From positions 19,377 to 83,376 of IMG/VR virus record IMGVR_UViG_3300017735_002163: 64,000 nucleotides of DNA; one strand, given 5' to 3'. Shown here in pieces: positions 15,916 through 35,412 of the stretch. This stretch comes from a virus. Below the pieces are notes generated by a model, which had not been told where the DNA came from, ran no database searches, and saw nothing but the letters and a program-made list of their open reading frames with translations. Position numbers and translations under genes: made by a program. Numbering within the stretch: the stretch's first letter is position 1; every line of letters starts with the position of its first letter.

Positions 15916-16677
15916 TTATCCTATAATAAATCCAAGCGGTAAATTACCTTCTTCCATATTGTGTACTGATTGAATCAGCGACTCTATTTCAGCCTGTGCT
16001 TCACCTTTGAGTGTTTCACCGTTAAGTTGTATTGCGCCGCCGGCTCCTGGTAGTCCTGAAGCATACTTGCTTCTTGCTTCACCTAACATCTGTTTAGCAG
16101 ATGCTAATGTCCAGTCTGCTAACCACTTGCCTGCATACACATCATTTAACAGCATGTGTTCTGGTATGAAATTATACACACCAACTGCTACTTCCTCATC
16201 GACTGCTACGTTGCGTAGAATCTTTAACACCTTAGTGTTCCTGTTCCAGAGGAAATTATATTCGCTACCAAAGATACGACCAATTGTTTCTTTGTATTGT
16301 GAGAATGCATCAAAAGTTGCTAAGCCTCCAATCTGGCCTGCGTTTAGTAGATACATGTTATTGAATGCTACATCAAATGGATCAAAATTACTACCGGATC
16401 CACTGTTAGTTCCAACACCTCGTCGATATAATCTGCGTACTTCCATTACCTCATTAGGTAAGGTATACTCAGTTGTGTTAGGTTGCGTTTGAATAAAGAT
16501 AACACTCTCTTCTACAGCACCTGAACTTAACTGTCTATATTTTTTTAATGCTTGATCAATCGCAACATCGTAATGTTCACGATCTAATTCCACATCAACA
16601 ACGCCATCAGCAAGACGTAATTGCGTCTCTTTGATAAGCTCTTCTCTGTTGTTATATCCTATTTGGTCTTTTGGCAT
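15916..16677 (-). CDS. 13: gp13 neck protein
   Basis: Neck protein that seals the filled head and receives the tail. The N-terminus (MPKDQIGYNNREELI), LDREHYDVAIDQALKKYRQL, TTEYTLPNEVMEVRRLYRRG and the DVYAGKWLADWTLASAKQML section are typical of gp13 in marine T4-like phages. I place the start at 16677, giving 253 aa. A longer frame begins at 16692, but it would read through the late box GATAAATAGTGTT, which lies directly before this ATG. The same box-plus-spacer precedes the gp14 gene at 23246, so the two neck genes share a promoter sequence. Confidence 0.88.
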   Translation of the reverse strand: MPKDQIGYNNREELIKETQLRLADGVVDVELDREHYDVAIDQALKKYRQLSSGAVEESVIFIQTQPNTTEYTLPNEVMEVRRLYRRGVGTNSGSGSNFDPFDVAFNNMYLLNAGQIGGLATFDAFSQYKETIGRIFGSEYNFLWNRNTKVLKILRNVAVDEEVAVGVYNFIPEHMLLNDVYAGKWLADWTLASAKQMLGEARSKYASGLPGAGGAIQLNGETLKGEAQAEIESLIQSVHNMEEGNLPLGFIIG

Positions 16678-16682
16678 AACAC

Positions 16683-16690
16683 TATTTATC
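16683..16690 (-). promoter_or_regulatory. late box GATAAATA, 5 nt before ATG (leaderless type)
   Basis: GATAAATA-GTGTT-ATG on the minus strand for gp13. The thirteen bases are identical to those before gp14 on the other strand. Confidence 0.72.
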
Positions 16691-16700
16691 ACTTATTTGA

Positions 16701-17834
16701 CTAAAAGGTCTTAAGAATGATTGTGTTTTCGTTAAATCTGCCATTTAATACAGTATCTGTGGTTTTGATGTCGTCGAATGCTTTTTGATACTTTGTTTTA
16801 GCATTACCCTTAAACAACTTTAGTTGCTCTGCTGGTTTACGTAATGTTTTTTGTCTACTTTTAAGAGCATCAAATTCTTGTAAGGTAGTGCCTTTAACAC
16901 TGATGCCTGTTTTTAATGCTTCAACATAGTAAATACCAATCTTTCTTGTTTTAGTATTATAGACCCAAACTTCAGTAGAATCAATTATTTCTGTTGGATT
17001 AACACTTGCAATACCTAAGTCACTGTCGTTAATTTGGTACTTTAATTTGCTGACTATCTTGTCTCTGCTTACTGCTTTTGGCTTACGAGGCTTACGACTT
17101 GCTTTACCTGTAGCAATAAATGTATCACATGCAGTGTTTATTTTTTCATAGAACTCTAAAAATGCTTTACGTAATTTAGGTGAAAAATTGCTGTATGCTT
17201 CTTTGATTTCTTCGTCTTTCCATTCAGCAACTATCATTGCTTCTGCATATTCATTCTCATACATGTCTTTGATAATCTTTGCATGGTTGGGTTTGATTAC
17301 ACCACCTGCGTATGCTCTCATATCATTGTATGGATCAAATTCTTTTAATGTTTTATTACCGTCAATTAAGTCATCTAATAAACCGTCCCATTCCCCACAT
17401 AAATTTGCAACTTGCTCACGCATACGTTCTTGTATGCTGATAACTACTTTTGGTTTCTCTTTTTCCTTTTCTTCTTTTTCTTCGAGAATTGTTAGACCAC
17501 GTTCATACCATTCAACTTTACGTTTTTCAATATATGCTCTCATAACCTCTGGCATGAATCCTAACTTAGATTCTAAGTAGACTGCCGTTGCTGATGTGCT
17601 CCATGCCCAATCAGGATTTCGCAGGATAACATCAACCTCTGCCTTTTCCCAACCTGACGATTCTTTCATCCACTTGCGGAAGATTGTATTTTTTAATTTG
17701 TCAGAAATTTCAGTACGAGCAAAGTAGTCGCAATCACGGAATACCTTCTCATGCTTTTCTGGTGGGGTGTCTTTAAAATTTTTCCAGACAGGTTCTGGTG
17801 TCAAATAAATATTCTTTGCTTTTCTTTTTGCCAT
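16701..17834 (-). CDS. unknown basic protein with sigma70 promoter
   Basis: 377 aa, rich in Lys, no signal peptide. The first 110 residues look helical (WKNFKDTPPEKHEKVFRDCD). A short EKEEKEKEKPK linker separates them from a helical middle, and the C-terminal third (from about 265, KLKYQINDSDLG) appears strand-rich before ending NENTIILKTF. No family is recognised. Unlike the neighbouring late genes it is preceded by a sigma70 promoter and an AAAGGA ribosome site, so it is probably made early. It may be a DNA-related or virion protein conserved in these phages. Confidence 0.7.
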   Translation of the reverse strand: MAKRKAKNIYLTPEPVWKNFKDTPPEKHEKVFRDCDYFARTEISDKLKNTIFRKWMKESSGWEKAEVDVILRNPDWAWSTSATAVYLESKLGFMPEVMRAYIEKRKVEWYERGLTILEEKEEKEKEKPKVVISIQERMREQVANLCGEWDGLLDDLIDGNKTLKEFDPYNDMRAYAGGVIKPNHAKIIKDMYENEYAEAMIVAEWKDEEIKEAYSNFSPKLRKAFLEFYEKINTACDTFIATGKASRKPRKPKAVSRDKIVSKLKYQINDSDLGIASVNPTEIIDSTEVWVYNTKTRKIGIYYVEALKTGISVKGTTLQEFDALKSRQKTLRKPAEQLKLFKGNAKTKYQKAFDDIKTTDTVLNGRFNENTIILKTF

Positions 17835-17865: not shown

Positions 17866-17893
17866 AGTATAACACATCATTATGCTTTGTCAA
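17866..17893 (-). promoter_or_regulatory. sigma70 promoter for the 377-aa gene
   Basis: Minus strand TTGACA (17893-17888), 16-nt spacer, TATACT (17871-17866). It overlaps the 3' end of the radical SAM gene and gives a leader of about 25 nt. Confidence 0.8.
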
Positions 17894-19763
17894 TGATGTT
17901 ACTTAAATAACCTCTTCTGCGTCTAAACAAAAGATTGTCCACATGTTCTTTCATGTTTTCCGGGAACATATTTGTTCTGTCACTTACTATATAAGTCGAC
18001 GGGGTCATGTCAAGTTCAATTTTTTGGTCTTGTACGTAATCCCAGAGGTTAGTAAAGGTATTTATAGATTCTGAGTTAAAACGTGTGTTTTTGAATTGTT
18101 TTATACGTTTTATAGTTATATTTCTATAATCTGCAAGGATTTGCTCGGGGGTGTCAGGATATTGTTGTTGTGTGTAATCGCTAACACATTGTATAGCATA
18201 TTCTAATAAGTCTTCGTTTTGCAATGTAGACATCAAACTGATAATAATTTGCCAACTGTCAAATTTGTAGTCTTTGCTTTTGAGTGAAAAGTATCCGGTT
18301 CTGTGCCATTTGTGTATGCCGTCTCTGATTCTATCTTCCAGTTGGATAAACACAGGGTTGCGTTTGAACTCTAAAAACAATCCTTCATAAAATTCTTTGT
18401 AAGTGGTATTACCCTGTTTAACCAATGCTCTCGATATTATATCGGATATACCTTGTGTGTGCAAACCTGTTATGTACCATGCTGTGATAAATGCTTCTAT
18501 GATATCTGATTCAGACATAGTGCTGGTACTTTTTATAATAGGCACGTCTTCGTCAGGCACCTTTGAGTTGAAGTCATTGGTTTCGTAAAACATGTCATGT
18601 GCAATAAATGTTTCCAATTGATACTTTTCAATATCCTGTTGCATTGGTGCATTTTCTAACATGTTTAACAGGAACACGTCGAGCCCACTGTGTAGTCCTG
18701 CATCAAGCACATCATAATAAACATTCTTAATGGTGTCAAGTGTTTCGGTTGGTAATCCAACAATTATTTCTGTGAGAATAGAGATTTGATTTTTTATTCC
18801 TAAGTCTGTGATGTCTCGTATATCATTAATACCCATGTTGGTACGTTTAATTGCTTCTAATACGTTTGGGGTAGTTGTTTGTAAACTTAAAGTAAATCCA
18901 CTTCCTACTCCTGCTTCTTGAAACTTTCTAATGATGCCAAACACATCTGCATTACTGTTTTTAGCATAACTCACACTGAGACCTGTTGGAACTGAATACA
19001 GTTTTTTAGACTCTACTATTTTATCTGCTATGAGATTATCTCTTTCTCTGAACACACCGTAGTTTGCATTTGTGAGATTAATGAAAGGTAGACCGTTTTT
19101 GGCAAACCATTCTATTTCAGCAAACACTCGATCTAATTTAAATTTAATAATTTTACTGTTAGTTGCACTACCCCAATCACAAAATGTACATCTATAAGGA
19201 CAACCTCTGTCTGTCTCTAAAGTAGGCACCCATTCTATATCTGGGTAATCTGTGAGGAAGTGATCGAACACACCATCCAGATAAGGACTGGGTGTTTCTA
19301 ATTTTTTAAGACGTTCAACAGTGTGTGTTCGTGGTAGTTCTTTACCGTCTAAAATCATTAATAGCAATTCTTGTACACATACTTCACCCTCACCAATACA
19401 AATGGTGTCTATGTAAGGGTGTTCTATAAAGTAACTTGGACTTGTATGTGCAACTTCGGGGCCACCAATTAAACTTATAACAGCAGGATTAATTTCTTTG
19501 ACACGTTTTGCTAATTCATAAGTGTAGTTTTTATTCCACACATATAAACTGTACAACACTACATCACACTTGGCTAACTGCTGTGCTGTTTCTTCAACTG
19601 GGTCTCGTCTAAATGCCCAAACGTCTGCTGAAAAATGTTCTCTTATTTCTTCATTTTGTCTTGCATAGGCCCATAGCACACCAGAAGTGTAGGGCAAGTA
19701 GAAAGAATTTAGTATCTTGGGACCAGTTTGAAAATTTATTTGTGCTAACCCAAGAGAGAACAC
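17880..19763 (-). CDS. cobalamin-binding-type radical SAM enzyme
   Basis: 627 aa. The N-terminal 160 residues resemble a B12-binding Rossmann domain (CDVVLYSLYVWNKNYTYELA, then VISLIGGPEVAHTSPSYFIE and DTICIGEGEVCVQELL). The radical SAM cluster motif CPYRCTFCDWG follows at about residues 188-198 (CxxxCxxC), and the core ends near 400; a long helical C-terminal domain follows. Such enzymes do radical methylations or rearrangements on small molecules, lipids or peptides. The start is GTG at 19763, sharing one base with the stop of the epimerase gene, so it is the last gene of a coupled five-gene operon. Substrate unknown. Confidence 0.88.
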   Translation of the reverse strand: MFSLGLAQINFQTGPKILNSFYLPYTSGVLWAYARQNEEIREHFSADVWAFRRDPVEETAQQLAKCDVVLYSLYVWNKNYTYELAKRVKEINPAVISLIGGPEVAHTSPSYFIEHPYIDTICIGEGEVCVQELLLMILDGKELPRTHTVERLKKLETPSPYLDGVFDHFLTDYPDIEWVPTLETDRGCPYRCTFCDWGSATNSKIIKFKLDRVFAEIEWFAKNGLPFINLTNANYGVFRERDNLIADKIVESKKLYSVPTGLSVSYAKNSNADVFGIIRKFQEAGVGSGFTLSLQTTTPNVLEAIKRTNMGINDIRDITDLGIKNQISILTEIIVGLPTETLDTIKNVYYDVLDAGLHSGLDVFLLNMLENAPMQQDIEKYQLETFIAHDMFYETNDFNSKVPDEDVPIIKSTSTMSESDIIEAFITAWYITGLHTQGISDIISRALVKQGNTTYKEFYEGLFLEFKRNPVFIQLEDRIRDGIHKWHRTGYFSLKSKDYKFDSWQIIISLMSTLQNEDLLEYAIQCVSDYTQQQYPDTPEQILADYRNITIKRIKQFKNTRFNSESINTFTNLWDYVQDQKIELDMTPSTYIVSDRTNMFPENMKEHVDNLLFRRRRGYLSNIIDKA

Positions 19764-20719
19764 TACTTTTGCCTGTTATGTCTTGTATCGTCCTTGAATG
19801 GCAAGTTATTTTCTACAATGTTTTTCCAATCAGCAATAGTCTGATCGAGGCCATCACTAAGGGCAACTTTGGGTTTCCACCCTGTCATCTTGGTTAACTT
19901 ATCATTTGAACTGTTTAACAGATATATTTCGCCTGGACGATCTGGCTTTGTGTGCCAAAACACTTCGCCTGTCCAACCAATCTTATCTGCAATTGTTTGT
20001 ACATAATCTCTGATGCGTACTGCATTGTTAGGACCAAGACAGAAGATTTCGTTAATGCATTTTTCTGGGTTTGCAATTACTGTTTCCCATGCATCAAGTA
20101 AATCATCAATGTAAATAAAGTTTCTGTAAGGTTCGCCGTATCCTAAATTAATCTCATTTGGATTTTTCAACATTTGATAAATGATTTGCTCTGTTACAAA
20201 GAAGTTATTGTCCTTTCTACCATATGCATTTGTTTGCCTAATTATAGTATAAGGCATTTCATAACAACGTCCTGCATACTCGAGATATTTTTCACATCCG
20301 TATTTTGCAACGGCATATGGTGCATTTGGATTTGGTTGTGTTTGTTCATCATACGCAGGAATTGTTCCATCGAAGCCCTGCTTGATAACATCACTGATAG
20401 GTTGCCAACCGTATACTTCCATTGTACTTGCAAACACAAAGTTTTTAAAATCTGGTAAGTCTCTGCAACTCTCAATTAAGTTTACTGTGCCAACATAGTT
20501 AATTTCACTAAAAGTAGTTTGTTCGTAAAAACTTTGCTCTACTTCTGTTCTTGCGGCAAGATGGACAACTATTTCAGGATTTGCTTCCTTTACTTGTCTC
20601 TTAACCTCATCGTGATCTCTGAGATCTGCACGAAGAAAAGTTAGTTCATGATTTGGTGATAGTCTTTCGACCATGTGTTGTCCAATGAAGCCATCGGAGC
20701 CTGTAATAAAGATTCTCAT
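19763..20719 (-). CDS. NAD-dependent epimerase/dehydratase (nucleotide-sugar type)
   Basis: 318 aa, extended short-chain dehydrogenase. The N-terminal MRIFITGSDGFIGQHMVERL has the GxxGxxG NAD motif, and the catalytic YAVAK lies in NAPYAVAKYGCEKYLEY. Later segments (RQTNAYGRKDNNFFVTEQI, GEPYRNFIYIDDLLDAW, PDRPGEIYLLNSSNDKL) are those of nucleotide-sugar epimerases and dehydratases of the GDP-mannose 4,6-dehydratase/UDP-glucose 4-epimerase group. ATGA overlap with the upstream oxygenase-like gene shows operon coupling. In this cluster it could supply a keto-sugar for amination. The exact sugar cannot be read from sequence. Confidence 0.88.
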   Translation of the reverse strand: MRIFITGSDGFIGQHMVERLSPNHELTFLRADLRDHDEVKRQVKEANPEIVVHLAARTEVEQSFYEQTTFSEINYVGTVNLIESCRDLPDFKNFVFASTMEVYGWQPISDVIKQGFDGTIPAYDEQTQPNPNAPYAVAKYGCEKYLEYAGRCYEMPYTIIRQTNAYGRKDNNFFVTEQIIYQMLKNPNEINLGYGEPYRNFIYIDDLLDAWETVIANPEKCINEIFCLGPNNAVRIRDYVQTIADKIGWTGEVFWHTKPDRPGEIYLLNSSNDKLTKMTGWKPKVALSDGLDQTIADWKNIVENNLPFKDDTRHNRQK

Positions 20720-21258
20720 ATTTTTAACCTATAATCTATTAGTCCTGTTATTTGCATTGTATACCTTGGTATATAACCTAAGTTTGCAACCGTGTGTATT
20801 ACGCCAGGGAAAATAAAAGTATAATCCCCTTTGTTATAGTTATCAAAAGACTCGTCATCTATATTTAACCAATGTCCGAGTTGATGATCTTGCAAGAATA
20901 TATTTATTCTAACAAGTTCTAAATTTTCTAAAGTATCTTGATTATCTTTCAAGTATTGCTTTAGTCTATACATCGAATCCACATGTGGTGGAATAAATGT
21001 TCCTGTTGTTAATTTGTTTAAAGTAATTTGTTTGTGTTGTACCCAATCAAACTTATTACAAACATCCATAGCCCACTGTGGGCAGTCTTCTCCAAAGCAC
21101 TGATATAAATGTGCAGAACCTATTGGATATGTTGGTTCAGGTACATCTAAAGTTTTCCATAAACCGTTTGCTTCATCGGTGTCTGTGCTTTCAGGGAAAA
21201 CAGTATTGTTAAGCATTTCGTCGGTGACAAAATCAATATTAACATTACCTTTAATCAC
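20716..21258 (-). CDS. 2OG-Fe(II) oxygenase-like (aspartyl hydroxylase/cupin type)
   Basis: 180 aa with a double-stranded beta-helix pattern. IPPHVDSMYRLKQYL gives the first metal motif H-x-D, GDYTFIFPGVIHTVANLGYI the distal His, and the following PRYTMQITG an Arg where 2-oxoglutarate is usually bound. Between them, LVRINIFLQDHQLGHWLNID forms the core strands. It resembles the small 2OG hydroxylases found in marine phage genomes. The start is GTG at 21258, overlapping the amidinotransferase gene by 8 nt. It may hydroxylate the product of this operon or an unrelated protein. Confidence 0.72.
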   Translation of the reverse strand: MIKGNVNIDFVTDEMLNNTVFPESTDTDEANGLWKTLDVPEPTYPIGSAHLYQCFGEDCPQWAMDVCNKFDWVQHKQITLNKLTTGTFIPPHVDSMYRLKQYLKDNQDTLENLELVRINIFLQDHQLGHWLNIDDESFDNYNKGDYTFIFPGVIHTVANLGYIPRYTMQITGLIDYRLKI

Positions 21259-22303
21259 AATAACTCTCTAAGCCTCCTCTTCTTCGAAGGTCGAGTGTAG
21301 CACAATGTATGCCTCCACTTAAAGTCATTGCATGTCTAAATTGAACTGGAACACAATCAATATTATGTTTTTCAAGTTCTCTCATTAATGGCTCTTGCCC
21401 TGAATCACATATAACTGTGTTAGGATCAACACTCAATATGTTCATGCCAATATATGGTGAACAAGGATCTGGATAACCTTTAATTGCATTACCTCTGGTA
21501 ACACAATCATCAAAGTATATCTTATCCCATGACTTAAACATTTCAGGACAGTTGTCAGGTGTTACCCTTGCACTGTTTAATAAAACCAAGCCTGGTCTTA
21601 GTGGTATAATAGTGCTGTCAAAATGTGCAAAACTATATAGTTCACTGTAATGTAATTTATATCCCATTGGTTCAAGAAAACGTTTTAACCACTTATAGCC
21701 TTTCATGTTACCTGAATTACTTACTTGGTATAATAAATCTTTGCCTACTCTAACTATGTTAGGTGCATCAAATATGATTTCGTGATCTAATAATGTAGGT
21801 TTGCCAATTATATCTTCAAATTGATACAAGTCATCATGTAACTTAGGTCTCGGTGCTTGTAACCACATGGCACCATCTTCGAATGCTTCATACATGATGT
21901 CTTCGTATAACCTGTTTTCAAAATATCTTGCTCGAACAGGACTTGGTGTTTCAATCAACATGTCACCTAACGGCAATATGCAATCACGTGGACACCAACT
22001 ATACCAGCCTTTGCTTTTCCAACCTTGGCCTATGTCGTATTCTACGTTTTCCCAGTCGATAATTTTAGGTCTATGCACTTTAACACCCATTTTTGTGAGT
22101 GTGTTTGCAAGACCATCTGCGTCTTCATTGGCTTCGTCTATTACCCATTGTGGGTAAGGACCTGCCGGAGGTAATTCTTCGGGAGTTAATGTTGCATATC
22201 CAAAACTATTAGCACTTCTGTCTGTTGCTATTCTGCTGTGATGGGCATGTCCAACAATAATTTCTTCTAACGGGTCCCAGTCATTGTGTGTGTTAACTAT
22301 CAT
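21251..22303 (-). CDS. glycine amidinotransferase-family enzyme
   Basis: 350 aa. Transfers the amidino group of arginine to an amine, giving a guanidino product and ornithine. The whole active-site set is visible: the early motif WCPRDCILPLGD, DAPNIVRVGKDLLYQ with the catalytic Asp region, FAHFDSTIIPLRPGLVLLN with the catalytic His, and SGGIHCATLDLRRRG with Cys334 as nucleophile. The C-terminal end closely resembles animal and bacterial glycine amidinotransferases, and the family also includes the streptomycin enzymes that make guanidino-inositols. It has a leaderless-type late box. The amine acceptor is unknown; glycine is only one possibility. Confidence 0.9.
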   Translation of the reverse strand: MIVNTHNDWDPLEEIIVGHAHHSRIATDRSANSFGYATLTPEELPPAGPYPQWVIDEANEDADGLANTLTKMGVKVHRPKIIDWENVEYDIGQGWKSKGWYSWCPRDCILPLGDMLIETPSPVRARYFENRLYEDIMYEAFEDGAMWLQAPRPKLHDDLYQFEDIIGKPTLLDHEIIFDAPNIVRVGKDLLYQVSNSGNMKGYKWLKRFLEPMGYKLHYSELYSFAHFDSTIIPLRPGLVLLNSARVTPDNCPEMFKSWDKIYFDDCVTRGNAIKGYPDPCSPYIGMNILSVDPNTVICDSGQEPLMRELEKHNIDCVPVQFRHAMTLSGGIHCATLDLRRRGGLESYCD

Positions 22304-22308
22304 GCTAC

Positions 22309-22316
22309 TATTTATT
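22309..22316 (-). promoter_or_regulatory. late box AATAAATA, 5 nt before ATG (leaderless type)
   Basis: AATAAATA-GTAGC-ATG on the minus strand, partly overlapping the stop codon of the aminotransferase-like gene. It provides a second late start inside the biosynthetic operon. Confidence 0.68.
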
Positions 22317-23191
22317 TAACAATCGCTCATAAAGTCTGAAATACAGACTCTAAAATTACCAGGAACGCCTCTGGAATACATGTAATGTCTTTCTTCGTCA
22401 CCTAAACCAAATAACAGGGTATCGGTGTATACTAAATTTTCTGCTTCACACACTCTTTCATATTCTTTGCCGTGTTTATTCCAATTCCAATCAGGATCAA
22501 AGTGTTTCATAAAGTGTACACCTAAGTTCATGCTTGTTTTATTTTGGTAACCAACATCGTTGATCATTGTAACACCGTCATCAGTTGGTTTTCTTGAGAA
22601 TCGAATACCAACTCTGTGTGTTTCAAGAGGGAAAAAAGGCTTGCTAAGACTGAATACAACTTCTTCTATGCATGGATATTTGTCTAAGTCTATGTGTATG
22701 TTCTTACATATACCCCAATATGCTAAGTCTAAGCACACAGGTATATCTAATGTACAACATATACGCATCATGCGTTCAAATTCAGGGTGCATACAACCAA
22801 AGTCACTAAATGGTGCTGATATAATTAATGCATTCAGTCCTCTACCGACAAATCTGTCAGAGTTTACATCATCTATGTAAGCAAAATCTACATGTTTACC
22901 TTGGCATGCATGATATTGGAAGTCGCCAAGTAATGCATTTATTTGTCTTGTTTTACAATGGCGCAAAATAAAATTATCAAAGGCCTGACTTGTGCCTTGT
23001 GTATAATGTGCTGTGGGAAAGTTATCAAGACCTTCTATAGATTTCATGTCAGTGTAATTAATCCACTCTCTCCATGTGTCTTCATATTCAGACATTGTTA
23101 CTTCTGCAGGGGTAGTGTTCTCATAAAAATCTAAAAGTTCTTTACTGCGTACCGGCCTTGCGCCTTTTTGGTATAACTTGTGTTGCATCAT
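22316..23191 (-). CDS. fold-type I PLP aminotransferase-like protein
   Basis: 291 aa (288 if the second ATG at 23188 is used). It resembles a compact class I/II aminotransferase: YTQGTSQAFDNFILRH near residue 64, NALIISAPFSDFG followed by IPVCLDLAYWGIC with the Asp that pairs with the pyridine nitrogen, and EEVVFSLSKPFFPLETHRVG with the candidate Schiff-base Lys in SLSKPF. Usual enzymes are 350-420 aa, so this is a reduced version. It is the first gene of the five-gene operon and has a late box 5 nt before the ATG. It would supply the amine that the amidinotransferase could modify. Confidence 0.7.
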   Translation of the reverse strand: MMQHKLYQKGARPVRSKELLDFYENTTPAEVTMSEYEDTWREWINYTDMKSIEGLDNFPTAHYTQGTSQAFDNFILRHCKTRQINALLGDFQYHACQGKHVDFAYIDDVNSDRFVGRGLNALIISAPFSDFGCMHPEFERMMRICCTLDIPVCLDLAYWGICKNIHIDLDKYPCIEEVVFSLSKPFFPLETHRVGIRFSRKPTDDGVTMINDVGYQNKTSMNLGVHFMKHFDPDWNWNKHGKEYERVCEAENLVYTDTLLFGLGDEERHYMYSRGVPGNFRVCISDFMSDC

Positions 23192-23196
23192 ACCAA

Positions 23197-23204
23197 TATT
23201 TATC
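23197..23204 (-). promoter_or_regulatory. late box GATAAATA of the biosynthetic operon (leaderless type)
   Basis: GATAAATA-TTGGT-ATG on the minus strand. It is back to back with the plus-strand box at 23233-23240, so one 45-bp gap drives two divergent late operons. Confidence 0.72.
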
Positions 23205-23245: not shown

Positions 23246-24304
23246 ATGCCTAAATTAAGTTTATGGAATCCGGTTAAAACACATGACTTCAACTTTATCG
23301 ATAGAATAGTTGGAGAGCATATCTATGCCGGAGGAACAGGTGTCCACATACACAAATATATGGGGATTACCGATAGCGATACAACAAATGACCCGACCAG
23401 ACCAGGTGGAGTAAACACCAATGAATTGTTTATACAAGATTTGTTATTTTTGGAAAACAGAGATAGAAAATACAGTAAAGACATTTTTGAACTGCGTGGG
23501 CAATATAACTTAGGCGATAATGATGCATTTGATCTAACACAGTTTGGTGCCTTTCTTGCAAACGATACACTGTTTATGAATTTTCATACAGAAAGTATGG
23601 TAGATGCAATAGGAAGAAAACTAATGCCGGGTGATGTTTTAGAATTACCACATTTACGTGATGATTTATTACTGGGCAGTGACGAAGCAATAAATAGATT
23701 TTATGTAGTGCAAGAAGGTTCAAGACCTGCAGAAGGATATGATCCACGTTGGTGGTCACACTTGTGGAGAGTAAAACTTGGTCCTATAACAGACAGTCAA
23801 GAATACAGAGATATACTTGGCACTGGCGAAGAAGAAGGCGACTTGCGTAACTTAATGAGTAAGTATGCAGATGAAATTATCATCAATGATGCAATACTTA
23901 CCCAAGCAGAAAGCGATGTGCCAAGCGATCCGCAGGTTAGAGATACTTCTCATTTATATTATGATGAAGCATCAGGTAAACCTCGTATCGATTTACAATT
24001 TGGGGCGGACGGTAATACTCCACCCAATGGAGCCACTCTGGTAGGCAGTGGCGAAACATTCCCAGTTACAAATATTGCTAACGGTTCATACTTTTTACGT
24101 ACAGACTTTACACCTAACAGGTTGTTTAGAAAAGACGGAACAAGATGGATTAAAATTAGTGACGATAATCAACGCTCGTGGGCGGCGGCAAATAGAGCAT
24201 TAACATCATTTATAAATAACGATTCAAGTTTTGTTGAAGATGGCGAAATAAGAAACGAAAAAACAAATTTAAGTAAGGTTATTAAACCACGAACAGACGA
24301 TTAG
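23246..24304 (+). CDS. 14: gp14-like neck protein
   Basis: I start the protein at 23246 (MPKLSLWNPVKTHDFNFIDR), giving 352 aa. Longer in-frame starts from 23180 would run back through the divergent promoter region. The pattern VNTNELFIQDLLFLENRDRK, FDLTQFGAFLANDTLFMNFH, PGDVLELPHLRDDLLL, NRFYVVQEGSRPAEGYDPRW and WSHLWRVKLGPITDSQEY is that of gp14-type neck proteins in marine T4-like phages (T4 gp14 is 256 aa). Gp14 joins gp13 to seal the head. Here it is separated from gp13 by the biosynthetic operon and lies on the opposite strand. Confidence 0.7.
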   Translation: MPKLSLWNPVKTHDFNFIDRIVGEHIYAGGTGVHIHKYMGITDSDTTNDPTRPGGVNTNELFIQDLLFLENRDRKYSKDIFELRGQYNLGDNDAFDLTQFGAFLANDTLFMNFHTESMVDAIGRKLMPGDVLELPHLRDDLLLGSDEAINRFYVVQEGSRPAEGYDPRWWSHLWRVKLGPITDSQEYRDILGTGEEEGDLRNLMSKYADEIIINDAILTQAESDVPSDPQVRDTSHLYYDEASGKPRIDLQFGADGNTPPNGATLVGSGETFPVTNIANGSYFLRTDFTPNRLFRKDGTRWIKISDDNQRSWAAANRALTSFINNDSSFVEDGEIRNEKTNLSKVIKPRTDD

Positions 24305-27456: not shown

Positions 27457-29514
27457 TTATTTACTTGTAGCAATAAATATTCCATCCCAATCTTTTGGAA
27501 GTGTTTGAGTCTTTTGAAATTCGCAACGCTCAATCCACATATCATAATAACCTTTCATCTTGCCATCAAAATGCGTCTCTAATAATTTACACAATTTAAT
27601 TGCTCTATCAAACTCTTGGTTTCTATAATGTGTATGCATTGCATTATGCATCTCTTTAGACTTAGCATGTTTATCTGCTTTATAATCAAGCACAGTGTAT
27701 ATTTCAATGCCTATTGTTTTACCTTTAACTGCCAAGTCATCAACTTTTAAATAAAAGAATTCGTTTTTAGTTTTGTGATATGTACTACCACCGACTAATA
27801 GTAAGCACCCGTATTCCTTACACTTAGACTCAATTCGTGCGGCAGTTGATACAGCATCTCCAAGTACATCATAACTATGTCTGCTTGTAGAGCCCATCTC
27901 ACCGAGATAACCAACGCCAGTGTTAATGCCAGCCCCCATACCAATTGGAGGTCTTCCTTCTGCTGTGATCTTATCATTAAATTTCTCCACTGCTCTCAGC
28001 ATATCCAAACCTGTTTGCACTGCTGAGTGTTCATGCTTTGCATCATCGTTTGGTGCATTGTGTATATGCATACTTGCATCACCTATGTACTTGATAATCA
28101 TACCGTCTGCATCAAGTACAGGTTGTGTGATAGCATCCATATAACCATTCATTAGTTTTGTGAGTCCTTGTACATCATCTCCAAAACTTTCACCTAATGG
28201 TGTGAAGCCACGCAAGTCTGAGAAGCATATTGATATCTCTCGCTTCATGCCTTCTTTGATCAATGCAGGATTTTCTTGTAACATACGCACAACTGTGGGT
28301 GAACAATATCCTGCAAATTGCTTTTCTATTTCTTGTCTTAATTTAAACTGTATCCAGAAGTTGTTAAAACTTGCCTGTGTAAATATTAAAAATGTTGCTA
28401 TTGCAGGATATGTAGCATCAAATAAAACTAAGTTTGCTGTATAAGAATGTATAGTATAATAAGCAATAGACCCTATAATGCTTATTATACTAAACAATCC
28501 TGCCCATACAGGCAACTTGTATATTGCTAAAGCAACTAATACCATGCTCAACAACGCACACACAAGCTCTGTAAGCGACGATAATTCTGATCTGGTAATG
28601 TTACTCCCATCTATAAAATTCTGTAGCATGTGTGCTTGTATATGCTGTGGATATATGTTGCCTATCGGAGTGGGCACCGGATTGGCAACACCTTCTGCAC
28701 TCACACCCACTATGACGAACTTGCCGCCCATATTCGGTAAACTGTCTGCACCAGTGTATTCTATTTCTTCGAATGTATTATTAAAACGTATGTATGCTGT
28801 TCCATCGCCTTGTGTTACTACAGGAACAAATGGTGGTATAGCAAATTCTTGTATTCCTATCTCACTTGTTTTAATCATGTAACTGGGTTGACCAGTTTGC
28901 ACTCTTAACATTTCAATTGCAAACGAAGGATATATTTTATCCGCTACTGTGATTGCAAGTGGGTATGTTCTTGTTTGATTATCTGGTTGTGGTGCTGATG
29001 CATTAATACCAATACCAGATGCTACTGTTTCCAACTCTGCTATATTTGTTACCAGATTTTTCCAAGTCAATAAGTGTTGCTGAGCCGGGCTCGGGCCTAT
29101 TGTACCAGTCCCTATATGCGGGCCGGAACTCCTCACCCCTTTGGAACTTGGGGTCTGGGATAAAACTATTCCGTTTCCTTTTATCCATGATGCAAAGACT
29201 TCGTCTCCTCCAAAACGATCTACTTCAGGGAACATTAATGTAAAACCTACTATCCCTTGATTTTTTTGTCTTATGTCGTATATCATTTGTGCATAAGACT
29301 GCCTGGGAAATGGATACTGGCCTAAAGCATCTAAACTTTTTTCACCGAGATTAATTATAACTACTTCGTTACTTTGTTTTGTTTCGTCAAGTTGTTGGTA
29401 ATAATCAAATGTCTGCGAACGCAAACTTTGTAGTGGTGTAGGATCTGATATTCTCAAACCAAGTAATAAGCATATTGTTACTGCTACTGCCCAGCCGCTG
29501 TATAACCATTTCAT
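27457..29514 (-). CDS. CHASE2-domain class III adenylate cyclase
   Basis: 685 aa: N-terminal membrane anchor (WLYSGWAVAVTICLLLGLRI), an extracytoplasmic CHASE2 sensor domain to about residue 300 (SLRSQTFDYYQQLDETKQ, PFPRQSYAQMIYDIR, GKFVIVGVSAEGVANPVPTP), two or three membrane helices at about 310-390, then the cyclase domain at about 425-610. ICFSDLRGFTPL and IIKYIGDASM give the two metal Asp residues. Lys in IIKYIGD and Asp in SYDVLGD predict ATP as substrate. The usual Asn of GDxVNxAxR is Ser here (GDAVSTAARIE), though the Arg is kept, so activity may be reduced. It probably senses the periplasm and makes cAMP; partner candidate is the FecR protein. Confidence 0.9.
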   Translation of the reverse strand: MKWLYSGWAVAVTICLLLGLRISDPTPLQSLRSQTFDYYQQLDETKQSNEVVIINLGEKSLDALGQYPFPRQSYAQMIYDIRQKNQGIVGFTLMFPEVDRFGGDEVFASWIKGNGIVLSQTPSSKGVRSSGPHIGTGTIGPSPAQQHLLTWKNLVTNIAELETVASGIGINASAPQPDNQTRTYPLAITVADKIYPSFAIEMLRVQTGQPSYMIKTSEIGIQEFAIPPFVPVVTQGDGTAYIRFNNTFEEIEYTGADSLPNMGGKFVIVGVSAEGVANPVPTPIGNIYPQHIQAHMLQNFIDGSNITRSELSSLTELVCALLSMVLVALAIYKLPVWAGLFSIISIIGSIAYYTIHSYTANLVLFDATYPAIATFLIFTQASFNNFWIQFKLRQEIEKQFAGYCSPTVVRMLQENPALIKEGMKREISICFSDLRGFTPLGESFGDDVQGLTKLMNGYMDAITQPVLDADGMIIKYIGDASMHIHNAPNDDAKHEHSAVQTGLDMLRAVEKFNDKITAEGRPPIGMGAGINTGVGYLGEMGSTSRHSYDVLGDAVSTAARIESKCKEYGCLLLVGGSTYHKTKNEFFYLKVDDLAVKGKTIGIEIYTVLDYKADKHAKSKEMHNAMHTHYRNQEFDRAIKLCKLLETHFDGKMKGYYDMWIERCEFQKTQTLPKDWDGIFIATSK

Positions 29515-31743: not shown

Positions 31744-32631
31744 TTAATTGCTACCGTTTACTGTTACTGAACATCCTGCTGTGTTATAACATACACCTGT
31801 TATACTGTAACTGCCGGCCGATGATGTCATGTTTTGATCTAAGTCAAGTGTGTAAGCACCAGTACCGTATGTTAAATCAATTGCCGCTGTTGCGTTATTG
31901 CCACCACGTTGATTAACATCAACACTATGCCCGTCACCATCTAACACAATGTCTGCCCATTTAACACCACCGTTGCCTCGTTGATATAACACCACATCAT
32001 TGTAATCACCTGTTATCTCTATAAAGCCATCGTGTCCTGATTTGCCTAACTGCCTGTGGTCTACATCATTGTAGTCACCTGTTATAATGTTTGCCAAATG
32101 ATGAGGACCTGCGTTAGTACCGCCTGACGATCTGTTAGTATCTGTTTGGCTACTTGCTAAAGTATTGTTGGAGCCATCTATGGTCCAATATGCTTCGTGG
32201 CCGCCTTCTTCGTCTATGTCAAGATTGCCTGTTAAATGTTTACCTTGCCACACTTTGAGATCATTATTACTACCAGTTGCATCTACTTTTGCAAAGTTAT
32301 CGTTGCCGCCATTGCCTTGAAATAAATCAAACGTGTTGTTACTGCCATTTAAGTTACCTTCAAATAAATGACTGTAGCCTTGCTGATAAAATGTTAAGTT
32401 ATTAGACGCACCAAGTAATTGACTATTGATGTCTATGCCTTGGATTACATTGTCGTATCCATCTTGTGTTACCGTTAGAGTAAGATTGTCACCTGCTTGG
32501 TCAATGAGAATAATGTTGTCTGCATTTGCTGTCATAGGCATTAATAAAAACATGCCCAGTATAATATATCCCAATACTAAAAGAGGGGTATCTTTTGGTT
32601 TCATTTCGTTTAGTTTTTTATCTATGTTCAT
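31744..32631 (-). CDS. curlin-repeat (CsgA/CsgB-like) secreted protein
   Basis: 295 aa. After an N-terminal hydrophobic signal (LLVLGYIILGMFLLMPMTANA) come seven or more imperfect repeats of the curlin type, with the Q-x-G(-x)-N signature: LTVTQDGYDN, NLTFYQQGYSH, FDLFQGNGGND, LKVWQGKH, VVLYQRGNGG, VDVNQRGGNN. Spacing is about 22-45 residues, somewhat irregular compared with E. coli CsgA. Such repeats form amyloid fibre strands. The C-terminus has two cysteines (GVCYNTAGCSV), unusual for curlins. It belongs to the same transcript as the CsgG and CsgF genes and is the likely secreted substrate. Confidence 0.8.
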   Translation of the reverse strand: MNIDKKLNEMKPKDTPLLVLGYIILGMFLLMPMTANADNIILIDQAGDNLTLTVTQDGYDNVIQGIDINSQLLGASNNLTFYQQGYSHLFEGNLNGSNNTFDLFQGNGGNDNFAKVDATGSNNDLKVWQGKHLTGNLDIDEEGGHEAYWTIDGSNNTLASSQTDTNRSSGGTNAGPHHLANIITGDYNDVDHRQLGKSGHDGFIEITGDYNDVVLYQRGNGGVKWADIVLDGDGHSVDVNQRGGNNATAAIDLTYGTGAYTLDLDQNMTSSAGSYSITGVCYNTAGCSVTVNGSN

Positions 32632-32632
32632 A

Positions 32633-33820
32633 TTAACCTTGTGTTTGTCTTATGTATATATTTATACCTGAACAATCATTTACACATATAACGTTAGTTC
32701 TATTCTCTATGTCTGTTTCAAGTCTTGCATTACTGCCAACTGGCACTTTAACACTGATAGTACCATTAACTTCTCTGTAGAACCATATAAATCCAGAACG
32801 ATCTATTATGGTATTAAATTGTGTTTTTGGATCAAACCCTGATGCTAATGTACCTGTTATTATATCAACGCCTTGTTGTCCTTCTGTTTTTTCTGACAAC
32901 ACTGCAAGTTTATCTGCTTCGTCTAATATTTCTAATAAATCCTGTAAAAAATCAACACCTAATATGTCAACATCTAATTCACTGAATTCTAAGTCTATGC
33001 TATCTTCATTTTGATCGTCGAGCAAATTTTCTTCTAAGAAATCTATATCGAGATCACTGAATGCTAAGTAGTCAATGCCCTTTCTTGCTTCTATTTGTTG
33101 TTCTTCTGCTTCTGTGATTTCTGCTGGTTCACTTACAATAAACATGTTGTCTATCATATTTAAATTTAAATCTTGTATAACCACTGGCTGAGTTGGCGGT
33201 GTTTCAAACGTGCTTACCATTACTGCTTGATAGGCTTCTTCTAATACAACTGTTCCGCCATCATTAGTAACTGTGATAGCACCGGACGGTCTACACCCTT
33301 CTTCTAATTTTACCTTGTCTGTGCAATTTGCATCTGGCAATAGTATAACTAAACTCCTGCCTAATTCATCTACTGTGGTTGTAAAATCTGTTCCACGCAC
33401 ACCAATTGTTGCTGTGGGAGTTTGTATGGCTATGTTTTCTTTTGGTACAAGTCCTAATCCGCCTGTGGCAAATCTTGCTGTGCCTGACACAAAATTCATT
33501 GCCATTTTACTTTTGCTTGGATCGGGGTCGTAGACATACTCATTGATTACTATCAACGTATTTTCTGTCAGACTGACCTGTGTTTTATCTACGAATTCAA
33601 TTTTAAGTCTACCTGCTGTAGTTTCTACATTGTCCATACTAACAATTGTAGAATCTAAAACTGCAGACAGTTTTTCACCAGATGTTCGTTCTATACTACC
33701 CGGATTTCCAGTCTGCTCAAATACGCCGCCTATCCTTTCAGCGGCGCTTGAGTTAGACAAAAACGAAAACAGTACAACAAAACTAATCTTTCTGAGTAAT
33801 GCTAACTGTTGCGTTTTCAC
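32633..33820 (-). CDS. FecR-domain secreted protein
   Basis: 395 aa from a GTG at 33820 that overlaps the upstream curlin gene by 38 nt. A signal peptide (ISFVVLFSFLSNSSAAE) is followed by a FecR domain at about residues 35-200: GSIERTSGEKL, AGRLKIEFVDKTQVSLTENT, SGTARFATGGLG and IQTPTATIGVRGTDFTTTVD. The region after 210 is acidic (EENLLDDQNEDSIDLEFSE). FecR-type periplasmic proteins often occur beside CHASE2 cyclases or surface-fibre genes in bacteria. It could be a periplasmic sensor or scaffold linking curlin secretion with the cyclase, but there is no direct proof. Confidence 0.82.
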   Translation of the reverse strand: MKTQQLALLRKISFVVLFSFLSNSSAAERIGGVFEQTGNPGSIERTSGEKLSAVLDSTIVSMDNVETTAGRLKIEFVDKTQVSLTENTLIVINEYVYDPDPSKSKMAMNFVSGTARFATGGLGLVPKENIAIQTPTATIGVRGTDFTTTVDELGRSLVILLPDANCTDKVKLEEGCRPSGAITVTNDGGTVVLEEAYQAVMVSTFETPPTQPVVIQDLNLNMIDNMFIVSEPAEITEAEEQQIEARKGIDYLAFSDLDIDFLEENLLDDQNEDSIDLEFSELDVDILGVDFLQDLLEILDEADKLAVLSEKTEGQQGVDIITGTLASGFDPKTQFNTIIDRSGFIWFYREVNGTISVKVPVGSNARLETDIENRTNVICVNDCSGINIYIRQTQG

Positions 33821-34505
33821 TGTCTATATCTAAATCCATATGACCGTAGCATGAAGTTGCACCAGTGGCACATGTACCGGAACTTTGAATTAAATCAATG
33901 TCTCCGCCTGAACCGTCGTATACTACTTTCATGTACTGATCTGCACCATCAGTTTGGCTGGTTACAATATCGTTATTATCACCAGTTAGGTCAAAATTCC
34001 AAGTTGCATCATCGACTTCAATGTCAATGTCCCATACGTTGCTGTCACCTAAGATTGCTAAGTCGAAATCTAATCTTTCTGCACTTGCGGCTGATCCTAA
34101 GTCAAAGTCAAACGTATTTGAATCACCTTGAATTGTAGCGAGTATATTGCCTGTATCGGCTGAACCTGTGTCACCAACTTTGATGTCCCAGATATTACTG
34201 CTACCAGTAAAAGTCCAATCGTATGTACTGCTGTCTGCAGTTATACTACCAAAAAACTCATTACTGTTACCTATTTGGTCTAAATCGATATTCAATGATG
34301 AACCAACTATAGTTAGATCACTACTTTGATCTGTATCGCCGGCTATCTTGTTACCAAAACCTTGTTGTAAAATAGTTAAATTCAGTGTGTCACCAACTTG
34401 ATCAATTAAGATTTCATTATCAGTTGCACCTGCTGAATAAACTGCTCCACTAAAGGTCATTAACCCTACTACCAAACTTAATGCTGATAAAGTTTTATTC
34501 AACAT
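33783..34505 (-). CDS. curlin-repeat (CsgA/CsgB-like) secreted protein
   Basis: 240 aa with a standard signal peptide (LSALSLVVGLMTFSGAVYSA). The mature part begins with a motif nearly shared with the second curlin protein (NEILIDQVGDTLNLTILQQG versus DNIILIDQAGDNLTLTVTQD). It then carries repeats such as LNIDLDQIGNSN, GDSNTFDFDLG, GDSNVWDIDIE and GDNNDIVTSQTDG. The protein is very acidic. Two cysteines (GTCATGATSC) lie near the end. The start overlaps csgG by 11 nt, so secretion pore and substrate are co-translated. It could be the nucleator or a second fibre subunit. Confidence 0.8.
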   Translation of the reverse strand: MLNKTLSALSLVVGLMTFSGAVYSAGATDNEILIDQVGDTLNLTILQQGFGNKIAGDTDQSSDLTIVGSSLNIDLDQIGNSNEFFGSITADSSTYDWTFTGSSNIWDIKVGDTGSADTGNILATIQGDSNTFDFDLGSAASAERLDFDLAILGDSNVWDIDIEVDDATWNFDLTGDNNDIVTSQTDGADQYMKVVYDGSGGDIDLIQSSGTCATGATSCYGHMDLDIDSENATVSITQKD

Positions 34506-35412
34506 TTGTTTCTCCTATGTTTAAATTTTCTACAGGTGGGAGACTTTCAGCATCATTGCTGGTAATCGTCCAGTAACCTCTATCGTCACCTTGTTCGATG
34601 AGTGCAAGTACTGCCGCTTCCGTGGCGCTCCTTACTGCCCATGTCACACTTTCGTTAGAAGTAATTCCTGTTTCTAATTCTAATAATTTTGTATCCATGT
34701 CAAGAAAACGAAATACATCTCCTCCCATGCCTACACTAAGTATTGTCTTGTATGTCTGTACGTTAAGTATAACTTCGCCTGTTAAAGTACTAACAGCACG
34801 TAGACTAACAATAATGCTGTCTCGTCTGTATTGAGCACTTCCGCCGATACCTAAATATCTGGCTCCGTTACCTCCTGTTTCTATGTTACTATCGTACCCA
34901 ACTATACCGCCTTCAAGTAAAATACCCGCAAACAACATTGGTTGTAGTTTTTGGCTCTCTTTACCTGCTTTGGCATAATCGTCTCTGGTACTGCGGATAA
35001 TTTGTCTTTCTCTGACCAGGTTATCCAGACCTACTCCTCTTTCAACAACACGGAACCAAGTACCGTTTGCAGTCTCACCTGCGCCTGCCGCCTTAAGAGC
35101 ATCAATTAACAATGCTTTTGCACCCTGCGTTACTGCTGTGCTGAACAATGCTATATTGTCTTTTTGTTTTCTTTGACCTGTTAAGTCAGAGAACTGATAT
35201 ACTGCAACCACAGGCATTACTTCTGCAGGTGGTAACTGTCTTAATCTTTCATATGTTGGTAATTCGACTTGTTTTGGTTCTTCGACACACTCCATTACAT
35301 TGTCGTAACACCACTCGCCTGTTAATGCATTATTAGGCAATGACATTGATGCACACCCCGACATTATCGTGCTAAAAAGTAGTGTAGCAATTAGCGAACT
35401 ATAACTTTTCAT
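34495..35412 (-). CDS. csgG: CsgG, curli secretion channel lipoprotein
   Basis: 305 aa. A lipoprotein signal ends in MSGC with Cys20. The CsgG fold is unmistakable: VVAVYQFSDLTGQRK, ALFSTAVTQGAKALLIDALK, RVVERGVGLDNLVRERQIIR, GILLEGGIVGYDSN, GGNGARYLGIGGSAQYRRDS, VSTLTGEVILNVQTYKTIL, VFRFLDMDTKLLELETGI and ALIEQGDDRGYW. It forms the nonameric outer-membrane pore of type VIII secretion. Compared with E. coli, the constriction segment differs: Phe56 is kept in ALFSTAV, but Tyr51 and Asn55 are replaced and there is one extra residue. Confidence 0.95.
   Translation of the reverse strand: MKSYSSLIATLLFSTIMSGCASMSLPNNALTGEWCYDNVMECVEEPKQVELPTYERLRQLPPAEVMPVVAVYQFSDLTGQRKQKDNIALFSTAVTQGAKALLIDALKAAGAGETANGTWFRVVERGVGLDNLVRERQIIRSTRDDYAKAGKESQKLQPMLFAGILLEGGIVGYDSNIETGGNGARYLGIGGSAQYRRDSIIVSLRAVSTLTGEVILNVQTYKTILSVGMGGDVFRFLDMDTKLLELETGITSNESVTWAVRSATEAAVLALIEQGDDRGYWTITSNDAESLPPVENLNIGETNVE

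What the first reader, a model, noticed from the sequence alone, without database searches (positions are those of the whole stretch)
17880..23191. Five-gene biosynthetic operon inserted between neck genes
PLP aminotransferase-like protein, amidinotransferase with full Asp-His-Cys set, 2OG-oxygenase-like protein, nucleotide-sugar epimerase and cobalamin-type radical SAM enzyme are consecutive, on one strand, with overlaps of 1-8 nt between several, and start at a late box. The combination of keto-sugar formation, amination and amidination parallels guanidino-sugar chemistry in aminoglycoside pathways (streptidine). Possible products: a guanidino or amino sugar for virion or host glycans, a DNA modification, or a small signalling molecule. 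Late control points to a role during virion production or after lysis.
Basis: partly seen in the sequence, partly recalled or inferred. Interest (0 to 1): 0.87.

Follow-up and report, generated by a model that had tools for sequence, protein, structure and literature searches.

The report
Phage guanidino-compound biosynthesis gene cassette
A large aquatic phage carries, among its virion genes, a conserved set of enzymes that probably transfers an arginine-derived guanidine group onto an amine and then oxidises it; the amidinotransferase and oxygenase stay together in four groups of phage contigs, which suggests a widespread viral chemistry whose product is still unknown.

Summary
Five same-strand ORFs (17880-23191) overlap or nearly touch and encode a fold-type-I PLP enzyme, a StrB1-like amidinotransferase with complete catalytic set, a 2OG-Fe(II) oxygenase, an NAD sugar-nucleotide SDR (4,6-dehydratase-like tetrad) and a TokK/CysS-like B12 radical-SAM methyltransferase. 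A cyanophage-type late box (GATAAATA) lies 5 nt before the first start codon.

Comparative data revise the reading. The five genes are not one unit. The core is amidinotransferase + oxygenase, plus a PLP enzyme. In about 250 mostly marine virus loci the oxygenase family sits within 3.5 kb of the amidinotransferase in 42/42, 16/16, 22/22 and 50/63 testable loci of four groups; in the six records searched whole it occurs nowhere else. The SDR is lineage-specific and the radical SAM optional (16/42).

I take it to be a late-expressed pathway making a guanidino-bearing, oxidised amine or amino-sugar building block for a surface glycan. The glycan step is inferred: neighbours are glycosyltransferase-rich in cyanophages and Campylobacter phages, but no canonical glycosyltransferase was found in a 250-kb relative. 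Product, substrate and role remain untested. Single amidinotransferases were noted before in phages; I found no description of this linked unit.

The parts
22316..23191 (-). Gene 1 (G5): short fold-type I PLP-dependent enzyme, aminotransferase-like, 291 aa
   Evidence: AlphaFold2 pLDDT 92.5; Foldseek best HisC 3e-11; VIA-align Z 22 over about 280 of 291 residues; PLP contacts and carboxylate-type Arg invariant or nearly so in 34 homologues
21251..22303 (-). Gene 2 (AMD): L-arginine:amine amidinotransferase, StrB1-like, 350 aa; catalytic D179, H227, C334
   Evidence: 1BWD StrB1 E 1.9e-88 vs SxtG 1.4e-51 and AGAT 5e-49; catalytic and arginine-site residues aligned; median dN/dS 0.061
20716..21258 (-). 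Gene 3 (G3): 2OG-Fe(II) oxygenase (AspH/PiuC/proline-hydroxylase-like fold), 180 aa; one to three tandem copies in relatives
   Evidence: AlphaFold2 pLDDT 92.5; VIA Z 13.5 PiuC, 12.2 proline 3-hydroxylase; Foldseek AspH about 1e-5; HxD...H invariant; PF05118 in 4 of 13 members
19763..20719 (-). Gene 4 (EPI): extended SDR, nucleotide-sugar 4,6-dehydratase/epimerase-like, 318 aa
   Evidence: PF16363 1.9e-40, PF01370 5e-40; NCBIfam LegB/dTDP-glucose 4,6-dehydratase rank above GalE; T99-x-E101, Y135, K139; median dN/dS 0.067
17880..19763 (-). Gene 5 (rSAM): B12-binding radical SAM, C-methyltransferase-like, 627 aa; optional in relatives
   Evidence: PF02310 and PF04055; TokK 7KDX 1.4e-72, CysS 1.2e-45; KedN5 family 9e-65 but far under its cut-off
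23197..23204 (-). Late-promoter-like box GATAAATA, 5 nt upstream of gene 1 start
   Evidence: NATAAATA is the reported late promoter motif of cyanophage S-PM2 (PMC2984593)
23233..23240 (+). Divergent GATAAATA box, 5 nt upstream of the flanking virion gene
23246..24304 (+). Flank: virion structural protein (phrog_11591), divergent
   Evidence: start chosen by comparison with relatives (MPRLSLWNP)
16701..17834 (-). Flank: conserved phage protein phrog_11903
15916..16692 (-). Flank: head-tail adaptor Ad2 (neck)
   Evidence: phrog_211 2.5e-33

Best explanation
It is a late-expressed phage biosynthetic cassette whose core (PLP enzyme, arginine-dependent amidinotransferase, 2OG-Fe oxygenase) makes a guanidino-bearing, hydroxylated building block. 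Proposed steps: (1) a PLP enzyme aminates a keto compound (inferred); (2) the amidinotransferase moves the amidino group of L-arginine onto that amine (chemistry strongly implied by the family and intact active site; acceptor unknown); (3) the oxygenase hydroxylates the product (reaction type inferred); in this lineage (4) the SDR prepares a keto-sugar nucleotide and (5) where present, the B12 radical SAM enzyme C-methylates an unactivated carbon (both inferred). The building block is then most likely attached to a glycan of the virion or of the host surface (inferred, the weakest step).
For: Conserved linkage: oxygenase family within 3.5 kb of the amidinotransferase in 42/42, 16/16, 22/22 and 50/63 loci of four groups; PLP gene in 80/80 loci of three, and in the fourth a mini-DegT (sugar-aminotransferase family) protein in 72 of 81. 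Density of the oxygenase near vs far from the amidinotransferase: 0.335 vs 0 per kb (window lineage), 0.138 vs 0.018 (cyano group); genome-wide it occurs only beside the amidinotransferase in six records. Gene order differs (G5-AMD-G3, G3-G5-AMD, G3-AMD) and so do the flanks, so linkage is not just inherited synteny. Purifying selection on AMD and SDR is as strong as on a phage housekeeping kinase (dN/dS 0.061, 0.067 vs 0.093). Glycan context: GT25 and other glycosyltransferases, KdsA/KdsB and a second amidinotransferase in cyanophage S-SCSM2R; nucleotide-diphospho-sugar transferases beside the amidinotransferase of Campylobacter phages. StrB1 similarity and a streptomycin-type plasmid cluster. 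The site adjoins neck genes, as does the hypervariable host-recognition cluster with glycosyltransferases and radical SAM genes in pelagimyophages (PMC7029224). Late box.
Against: No GT2, GT4 (PF00534), GT47, GT25, DegT or NTP-transferase match in the 250-kb relative; none of the families searched for matched the own 83-kb record either. The SDR is missing from other groups carrying the core. The PLP enzyme also resembles arginine oxidases (Plu4, RohP, MppP) and C-S lyases equally well. The mini-DegT partner is about half the family length and may not be an active aminotransferase. No transcript, protein or metabolite data.
Confidence: 0.42

Rival explanations
1. The cassette makes a free small molecule: an arginine-derived guanidino amino acid or signal (enduracididine-, hydroxyarginine- or phosphagen-like) acting in the infected cell or after lysis, not attached to any glycan.
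For: PLP profile's only solved-structure match by sequence is 7N79 (E 2e-4), listed as the O2-, PLP-dependent desaturase Plu4; Plu4, RohP and MppP, acting on arginine, are within 1.5 Z of the best fold match; amidinotransferases need arginine; no canonical glycosyltransferase found in this lineage.
Against: The PLP fold match is non-specific (999 chains with Z 8 or more); the sugar-nucleotide SDR is present in 42/42 loci of the lineage; two other phage types keep the amidinotransferase among glycosyltransferases.
Confidence: 0.25
2. The enzymes modify amino-acid side chains of virion or host proteins: AspH-like hydroxylation, amidination and glycosylation of structural proteins.
For: The oxygenase is closest in fold to protein and proline hydroxylases and AspH; GT25 glycosyltransferases accompany it in cyanophages; the cassette lies among structural genes.
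Against: Characterised amidinotransferases of this family act on small molecules (family knowledge); the SDR, PLP and B12 radical SAM enzymes have no obvious place in side-chain modification.
Confidence: 0.12
3. The product is a hypermodified DNA base or a substituent of phage DNA.
For: Phage DNA hypermodification can use PLP and radical SAM enzymes (recalled, not tested here).
Against: No thymidylate-synthase/hydroxymethylase family (PF00303) in four records including the 250-kb relative; the only thymidylate enzyme seen is ThyX; a late box and a position among structural genes fit DNA precursor synthesis poorly.
Confidence: 0.06
4. Unlinked auxiliary genes reprogramming host arginine/nitrogen metabolism (for example creatine-type metabolism) that share a permissive insertion site.
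For: Viral creatine-type genes are reported from the ocean (PMC11360552); the site also collects sulfotransferase-like, SGNH-like and radical SAM genes.
Against: The core genes stay together across different flanks and gene orders in four phage groups; no creatine-methyltransferase partner seen.
Confidence: 0.1

Closest known systems
StrB1, inosamine-phosphate amidinotransferase of streptomycin biosynthesis (1BWD)
   Same: Nearly gapless alignment over 347 residues, same catalytic and arginine-site residues, far better score than AGAT, SxtG or HsvA
   Different: Distant relative only; deep forks of the tree unresolved; no inositol/inosose enzymes recognised in the cassette
Streptidine/aminocyclitol clusters (plasmid cluster of Streptomyces sp. 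NBC_00853)
   Same: PLP aminotransferase plus amidinotransferase plus oxidoreductase
   Different: Phage core has a 2OG oxygenase and a different PLP family; no DegT aminotransferase, GMC oxidoreductase or StrI-like protein in the window cassette
Amidinotransferase/radical SAM clusters of Campylobacter phages CP220 and CPt10 (PMC2853527)
   Same: Phage amidinotransferase in a replaceable module with C-H-functionalising enzymes and sugar-transferase-like proteins
   Different: Only 23-30% identical; radical SAM enzymes without 2OG oxygenases of this family; no G3 or G5 family members found
Synechococcus phage S-SCSM2R glycan islands
   Same: Adjacent amidinotransferase (37%) and 2OG oxygenase, overlapping by 4 nt
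   Different: Embedded in glycosyltransferases with a mini-DegT protein; no G5, SDR or B12 radical SAM beside it
Host recognition cluster of pelagimyophages (PMC7029224)
   Same: Hypervariable island beside neck genes with glycosyltransferases and radical SAM cassettes
   Different: No amidinotransferase unit is mentioned in the passages read; different phage lineage
TokK / CysS B12 radical SAM methyltransferases
   Same: Sequence match over about 450 residues
   Different: Far below the KedN5 family cut-off; substrate unknown; phage context

Membership tests
Arginine:amine amidinotransferase (pentein; AGAT/StrB1 family) | Asp-His-Cys catalytic set plus arginine-site residues | tested here: met
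   D179, H227, C334, D107, D229, S282 aligned with AGAT D254, H303, C407, D170, D305, S355
Inosamine-phosphate amidinotransferase (StrB1 subfamily) | Falls within the StrB1 clade | tested here: inconclusive
   Best by similarity, but the deep forks are open or weakly supported in the tree
Inosamine-phosphate amidinotransferase (StrB1 subfamily) | Inosamine-phosphate as acceptor | not testable with these tools
   Needs enzyme assay
Fold-type I PLP enzyme | Fold and Schiff-base lysine with PLP contacts | tested here: met
   VIA Z 22; K184, D155, S181, R193 invariant and Y158 nearly invariant in 34 sequences
Aminotransferase (rather than oxidase, lyase or decarboxylase) | Transamination activity | not testable with these tools
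   Fold matches do not discriminate
2OG-Fe(II) oxygenase | Double-stranded beta-helix with HxD...H and 2OG-binding Arg | tested here: met
   VIA Z 13.5; H92, D94, H155 invariant; R165 present in this protein but absent from one paralogue class, R117 invariant
Nucleotide-sugar 4,6-dehydratase | T-x-E plus YxxxK tetrad | tested here: met
   T99-M100-E101, Y135, K139; T-x-E as a dehydratase mark is from family knowledge; UDP-glucose 4-epimerase is the best solved structure, so activity is open
B12-dependent radical SAM C-methyltransferase (TokK/CysS type) | B12-binding domain and CxxxCxxC | tested here: met
   PF02310, PF04055; C188xxxCxxC; TokK match
KedN5 subfamily (NF033712) | Curated score cut-off 700 bits | tested here: not met
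   219 bits
T4-type late promoter | TATAAATA or NATAAATA box upstream of gene | tested here: met
   GATAAATA, enriched before starts, conserved at 5 nt in 14/48 relatives; transcription itself not tested
Phage glycan-biosynthesis island | Glycosyltransferases in the same locus or genome | tested here: inconclusive
   Present in cyano and Campylobacter phage loci; none of the canonical families searched found in the 250-kb relative of the window lineage or in the own record, which is only a fragment

The most novel reading that the evidence does not exclude
Many marine phages of at least three distinct amidinotransferase clades share a previously undescribed dedicated pathway (PLP enzyme, amidinotransferase, 2OG oxygenase, with optional sugar-nucleotide SDR, B12 methyltransferase, sulfotransferase- and esterase-like proteins) that builds a guanidino-bearing, hydroxylated decoration not known from any virus and installs it late in infection on virions or on the host surface, for example to alter adsorption, superinfection or stability.
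Probability: 0.33. Interest if true: 0.85.

Novelty: new variant of a known kind. Interest (0 to 1): 0.64.

Why it matters
Phages are known to carry scattered auxiliary metabolic genes and host-surface glycan genes, but a compact multi-enzyme unit with natural-product-type chemistry that is kept together across several groups of phages is unusual. The linkage shown here gives a specific three-gene unit to express, so the question 'what do the many phage 2OG oxygenases and amidinotransferases make?' becomes directly testable. A guanidino group is strongly basic; on a virion or on the host envelope it would change surface charge, which bears on adsorption, superinfection exclusion and defence.

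Tried and rejected
DNA search of the 5.3-kb cassette in phage records found nothing. Single-protein radical SAM scan in viral contigs found only the near-identical contig; homologues at 38-56% appeared only through the amidinotransferase loci. Exact TATAAATA is not enriched in the window (5 seen, 6.1 expected); only the cyanophage form NATAAATA before start codons is. AMD's own box AATAAATA (22309-22316) occurs at that spacing in 1 of 48 relatives, so I do not count it as a conserved promoter. dN/dS of G3 (0.52) mixes paralogues and was discarded. Distance-matrix correlation of AMD with G5 (r 0.93 overall) also follows from shared descent and was not used as proof. The recurrent 380-aa neighbour family (A3, invariant E-K...P-F...E-Y-D pattern) looked like a GT-B-type glycosyltransferase from memory, but Pfam and solved-structure searches gave no support, so it is left unassigned. 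Bacterial search with the PLP profile gave one contig, a phage-like fragment in a Synechococcus lacustris assembly; a terminase probe of that genome was empty, which shows little.
Full report
WHAT IS THERE. The window is 64 kb of an 83,376-bp virus record. The phage is a T4-superfamily myovirus whose terminase (57%) and a virion protein (45%) are closest to jumbo phages of the PA5oct group, with Atu_ph07, Phosso and SCTP-2 next. Five minus-strand ORFs without internal stops run from 23191 to 17880, with a 12-nt gap and then overlaps of 8, 4 and 1 nt. They lie between a divergent virion structural gene and phrog_11903/head-tail adaptor Ad2.

WHAT THE PROTEINS ARE. AMD: the best solved relative is StrB1, inosamine-phosphate amidinotransferase (E 1.9e-88, nearly gapless), far ahead of SxtG, HsvA and AGAT. 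The catalytic Asp/His/Cys and arginine-site residues align with AGAT. A tree of 28 sequences leaves the deep order open, so subfamily membership is not settled. G5: no family at threshold, but a model of pLDDT 92.5 is a complete fold-type I PLP enzyme (Z 22), with Schiff-base Lys184 and the PLP contacts conserved in 34 homologues. Arginine-acting PLP oxidases (Plu4, RohP, MppP) score about as well as aminotransferases, so the reaction is open. G3: the model is a 2OG-Fe(II) oxygenase (PiuC Z 13.5, proline 3-hydroxylase 12.2, AspH about 1e-5 in Foldseek) with HxD...H. EPI: extended SDR with T-x-E/YxxxK, nearer to 4,6-dehydratases in the profile search, although the best solved structure is annotated as an epimerase. 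rSAM: B12-binding plus radical SAM domains, nearest to the methyltransferases TokK and CysS.

WHO ELSE HAS THEM. Scans of IMG/VR with four amidinotransferase queries gave about 250 loci. Searching each with profiles gave, for loci with at least 2.5 kb on each side: window lineage, G5, G3 and EPI in 42/42 and rSAM in 16/42; L071-type, G5 and G3 16/16, EPI 12/16, rSAM 7/16; L085-type, G5 and G3 22/22 and no EPI; cyanophage type, G3 50/63, G5 none. The four groups are defined by the query that fetched them; the window and L071 sets overlap in lineage, and their amidinotransferases form one clade, while L085-type and cyano-type form separate clades. In the cyano group a 200-aa DegT-like protein accompanies the pair in 72 of 81 loci, together with GT25 glycosyltransferases, 3-4 copies per locus. 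Gene order changes (G5-AMD-G3, G3-G5-AMD, G3-AMD) and the flanks change (structural genes in the window lineage; DNA polymerase, ThyX-like and exonuclease-like genes in others by my reading of translations). The oxygenase family is dense beside AMD and rare or absent elsewhere in the same loci: 0.335 vs 0 per kb, 0.258 vs 0, 0.138 vs 0.018, 0.193 vs 0.075. In six records searched whole, three of them 239-251 kb, it occurs only there. I take the AMD-G3 pair plus a PLP protein as the functional core, with SDR and B12 radical SAM as lineage-specific or optional additions. In one relative the B12 radical SAM homologue lies far from the cassette.

SELECTION. In the window lineage and its close relatives AMD (median dN/dS 0.061) and EPI (0.067) are under purifying selection comparable to the phage dNMP kinase (0.093); the PLP gene (0.145) and radical SAM (0.245) are looser.

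EXPRESSION SIGNAL. GATAAATA precedes the first gene by 5 nt, and the divergent virion gene has the same box at the same distance. NATAAATA is the reported late promoter of cyanophage S-PM2 (PMC2984593). Before start codons it exceeds chance (16 of 34 vs 5.9 +/- 2.1), and 14 of 48 distinct upstream regions of G5 in relatives have it at exactly 5 nt; 19 of the 48 carry an SD-like sequence. So late expression is likely but not shown.

FUNCTION. That the core moves an amidino group from arginine to an amine is well supported by family and active site; that the product is oxidised is supported by the constant oxygenase partner. For attachment to a glycan the evidence is contextual: glycosyltransferases, KdsA/KdsB and a second amidinotransferase in S-SCSM2R, sugar-transferase-like proteins next to the amidinotransferase in Campylobacter phages, a streptomycin-type cluster around the closest plasmid homologue, sulfotransferase-like and SGNH-like genes joining the cassette in some relatives (weak matches), and a location next to neck genes where pelagimyophages keep their host-recognition cluster (PMC7029224). 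Against it, no GT2, GT4, GT25, GT47, DegT or NTP-transferase match was found in the 250-kb relative. The own record, searched only in part of these ways, gave none either, and it is a fragment of a genome that in relatives is about three times larger. DNA modification is disfavoured by the absence of a thymidylate-synthase/hydroxymethylase family and the late box.

NOVELTY. Putative amidinotransferases were reported in CP220/CPt10 as part of an exchangeable radical SAM module (PMC2853527) and appear in annotation of S-SCSM2R; glycine amidinotransferase is listed among viral genes of a karst lake (PMC8226683); abundant cyanophage 2OG oxygenases are described as functionally uninvestigated (PMC9602691). 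I found no description of the linked unit in the open-access papers searched; subscription papers and preprints were not searchable. I rate it a new variant of a known kind (phage auxiliary biosynthetic cassette).

LIMITS. IMG/VR loci are fragments, many near-identical; counts are loci, not independent events. Groups were assigned by query. All function statements are from sequence and predicted structure.

Noticed in passing
window 27457-29514 (-): Protein with CHASE2 sensor and adenylate/guanylate cyclase domains (PF05226 2e-32, PF00211 1e-16) in a phage, with a GATAAATA box 5 nt before its start; possible cyclic-nucleotide signalling by the phage.
   Followed up: no
window 31744-35412 (-): Curli-type gene set: curlin-repeat protein, FecR-domain protein and CsgG channel. 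Curli genes are known from pelagimyophages (PMC7029224).
   Followed up: partly
window start codons at 6622, 8331, 9247, 22303, 23191, 23246, 29514: Several genes have NATAAATA ending 5-6 nt before the start codon and no Shine-Dalgarno-like sequence, which would place the transcript start at or near the AUG (leaderless late mRNAs?).
   Followed up: partly
L256:14956-16554 (-), same record upstream of the window: Phage-encoded protein with TonB-dependent receptor plug domain and apparent signal peptide (PF07715 1.2e-8).
   Followed up: no
L031:8873-9973, L066:8715-9965, L114:1393-2628 and others (alignment A3): Family of about 380 aa with invariant E-K...P-F...G...E-Y-D pattern next to the cassette in 92 loci, five copies in one 250-kb relative, no convincing Pfam or solved-structure match.
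   Followed up: partly
L257:13354-14247 (Synechococcus phage S-SCSM2R 213353-214246): Second, very divergent amidinotransferase beside KdsA, KdsB, a carbohydrate phosphorylase and 2OG oxygenases; the catalytic Asp position reads Cys in the alignment.
   Followed up: partly
L085:3081-4109 and the L085-type group: The catalytic Asp of the amidinotransferase (AGAT D254) is Glu in all four L085-type sequences examined.
   Followed up: no
L093 (NZ_PXVC01000123.1): A 3.7-kb contig filed under Synechococcus lacustris Tous carries G5-AMD-G3-G3-EPI in phage order: phage fragment in a host or culture assembly, a possible host hint.
   Followed up: partly
L092 (Pelagibacter phage Mosig EXVC030M): A G5-like aminotransferase (31% over half the length) in an enzyme-rich cassette beside tail fibre genes with AspH-type hydroxylases, MoaA-like and carbamoyltransferase genes.
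   Followed up: no
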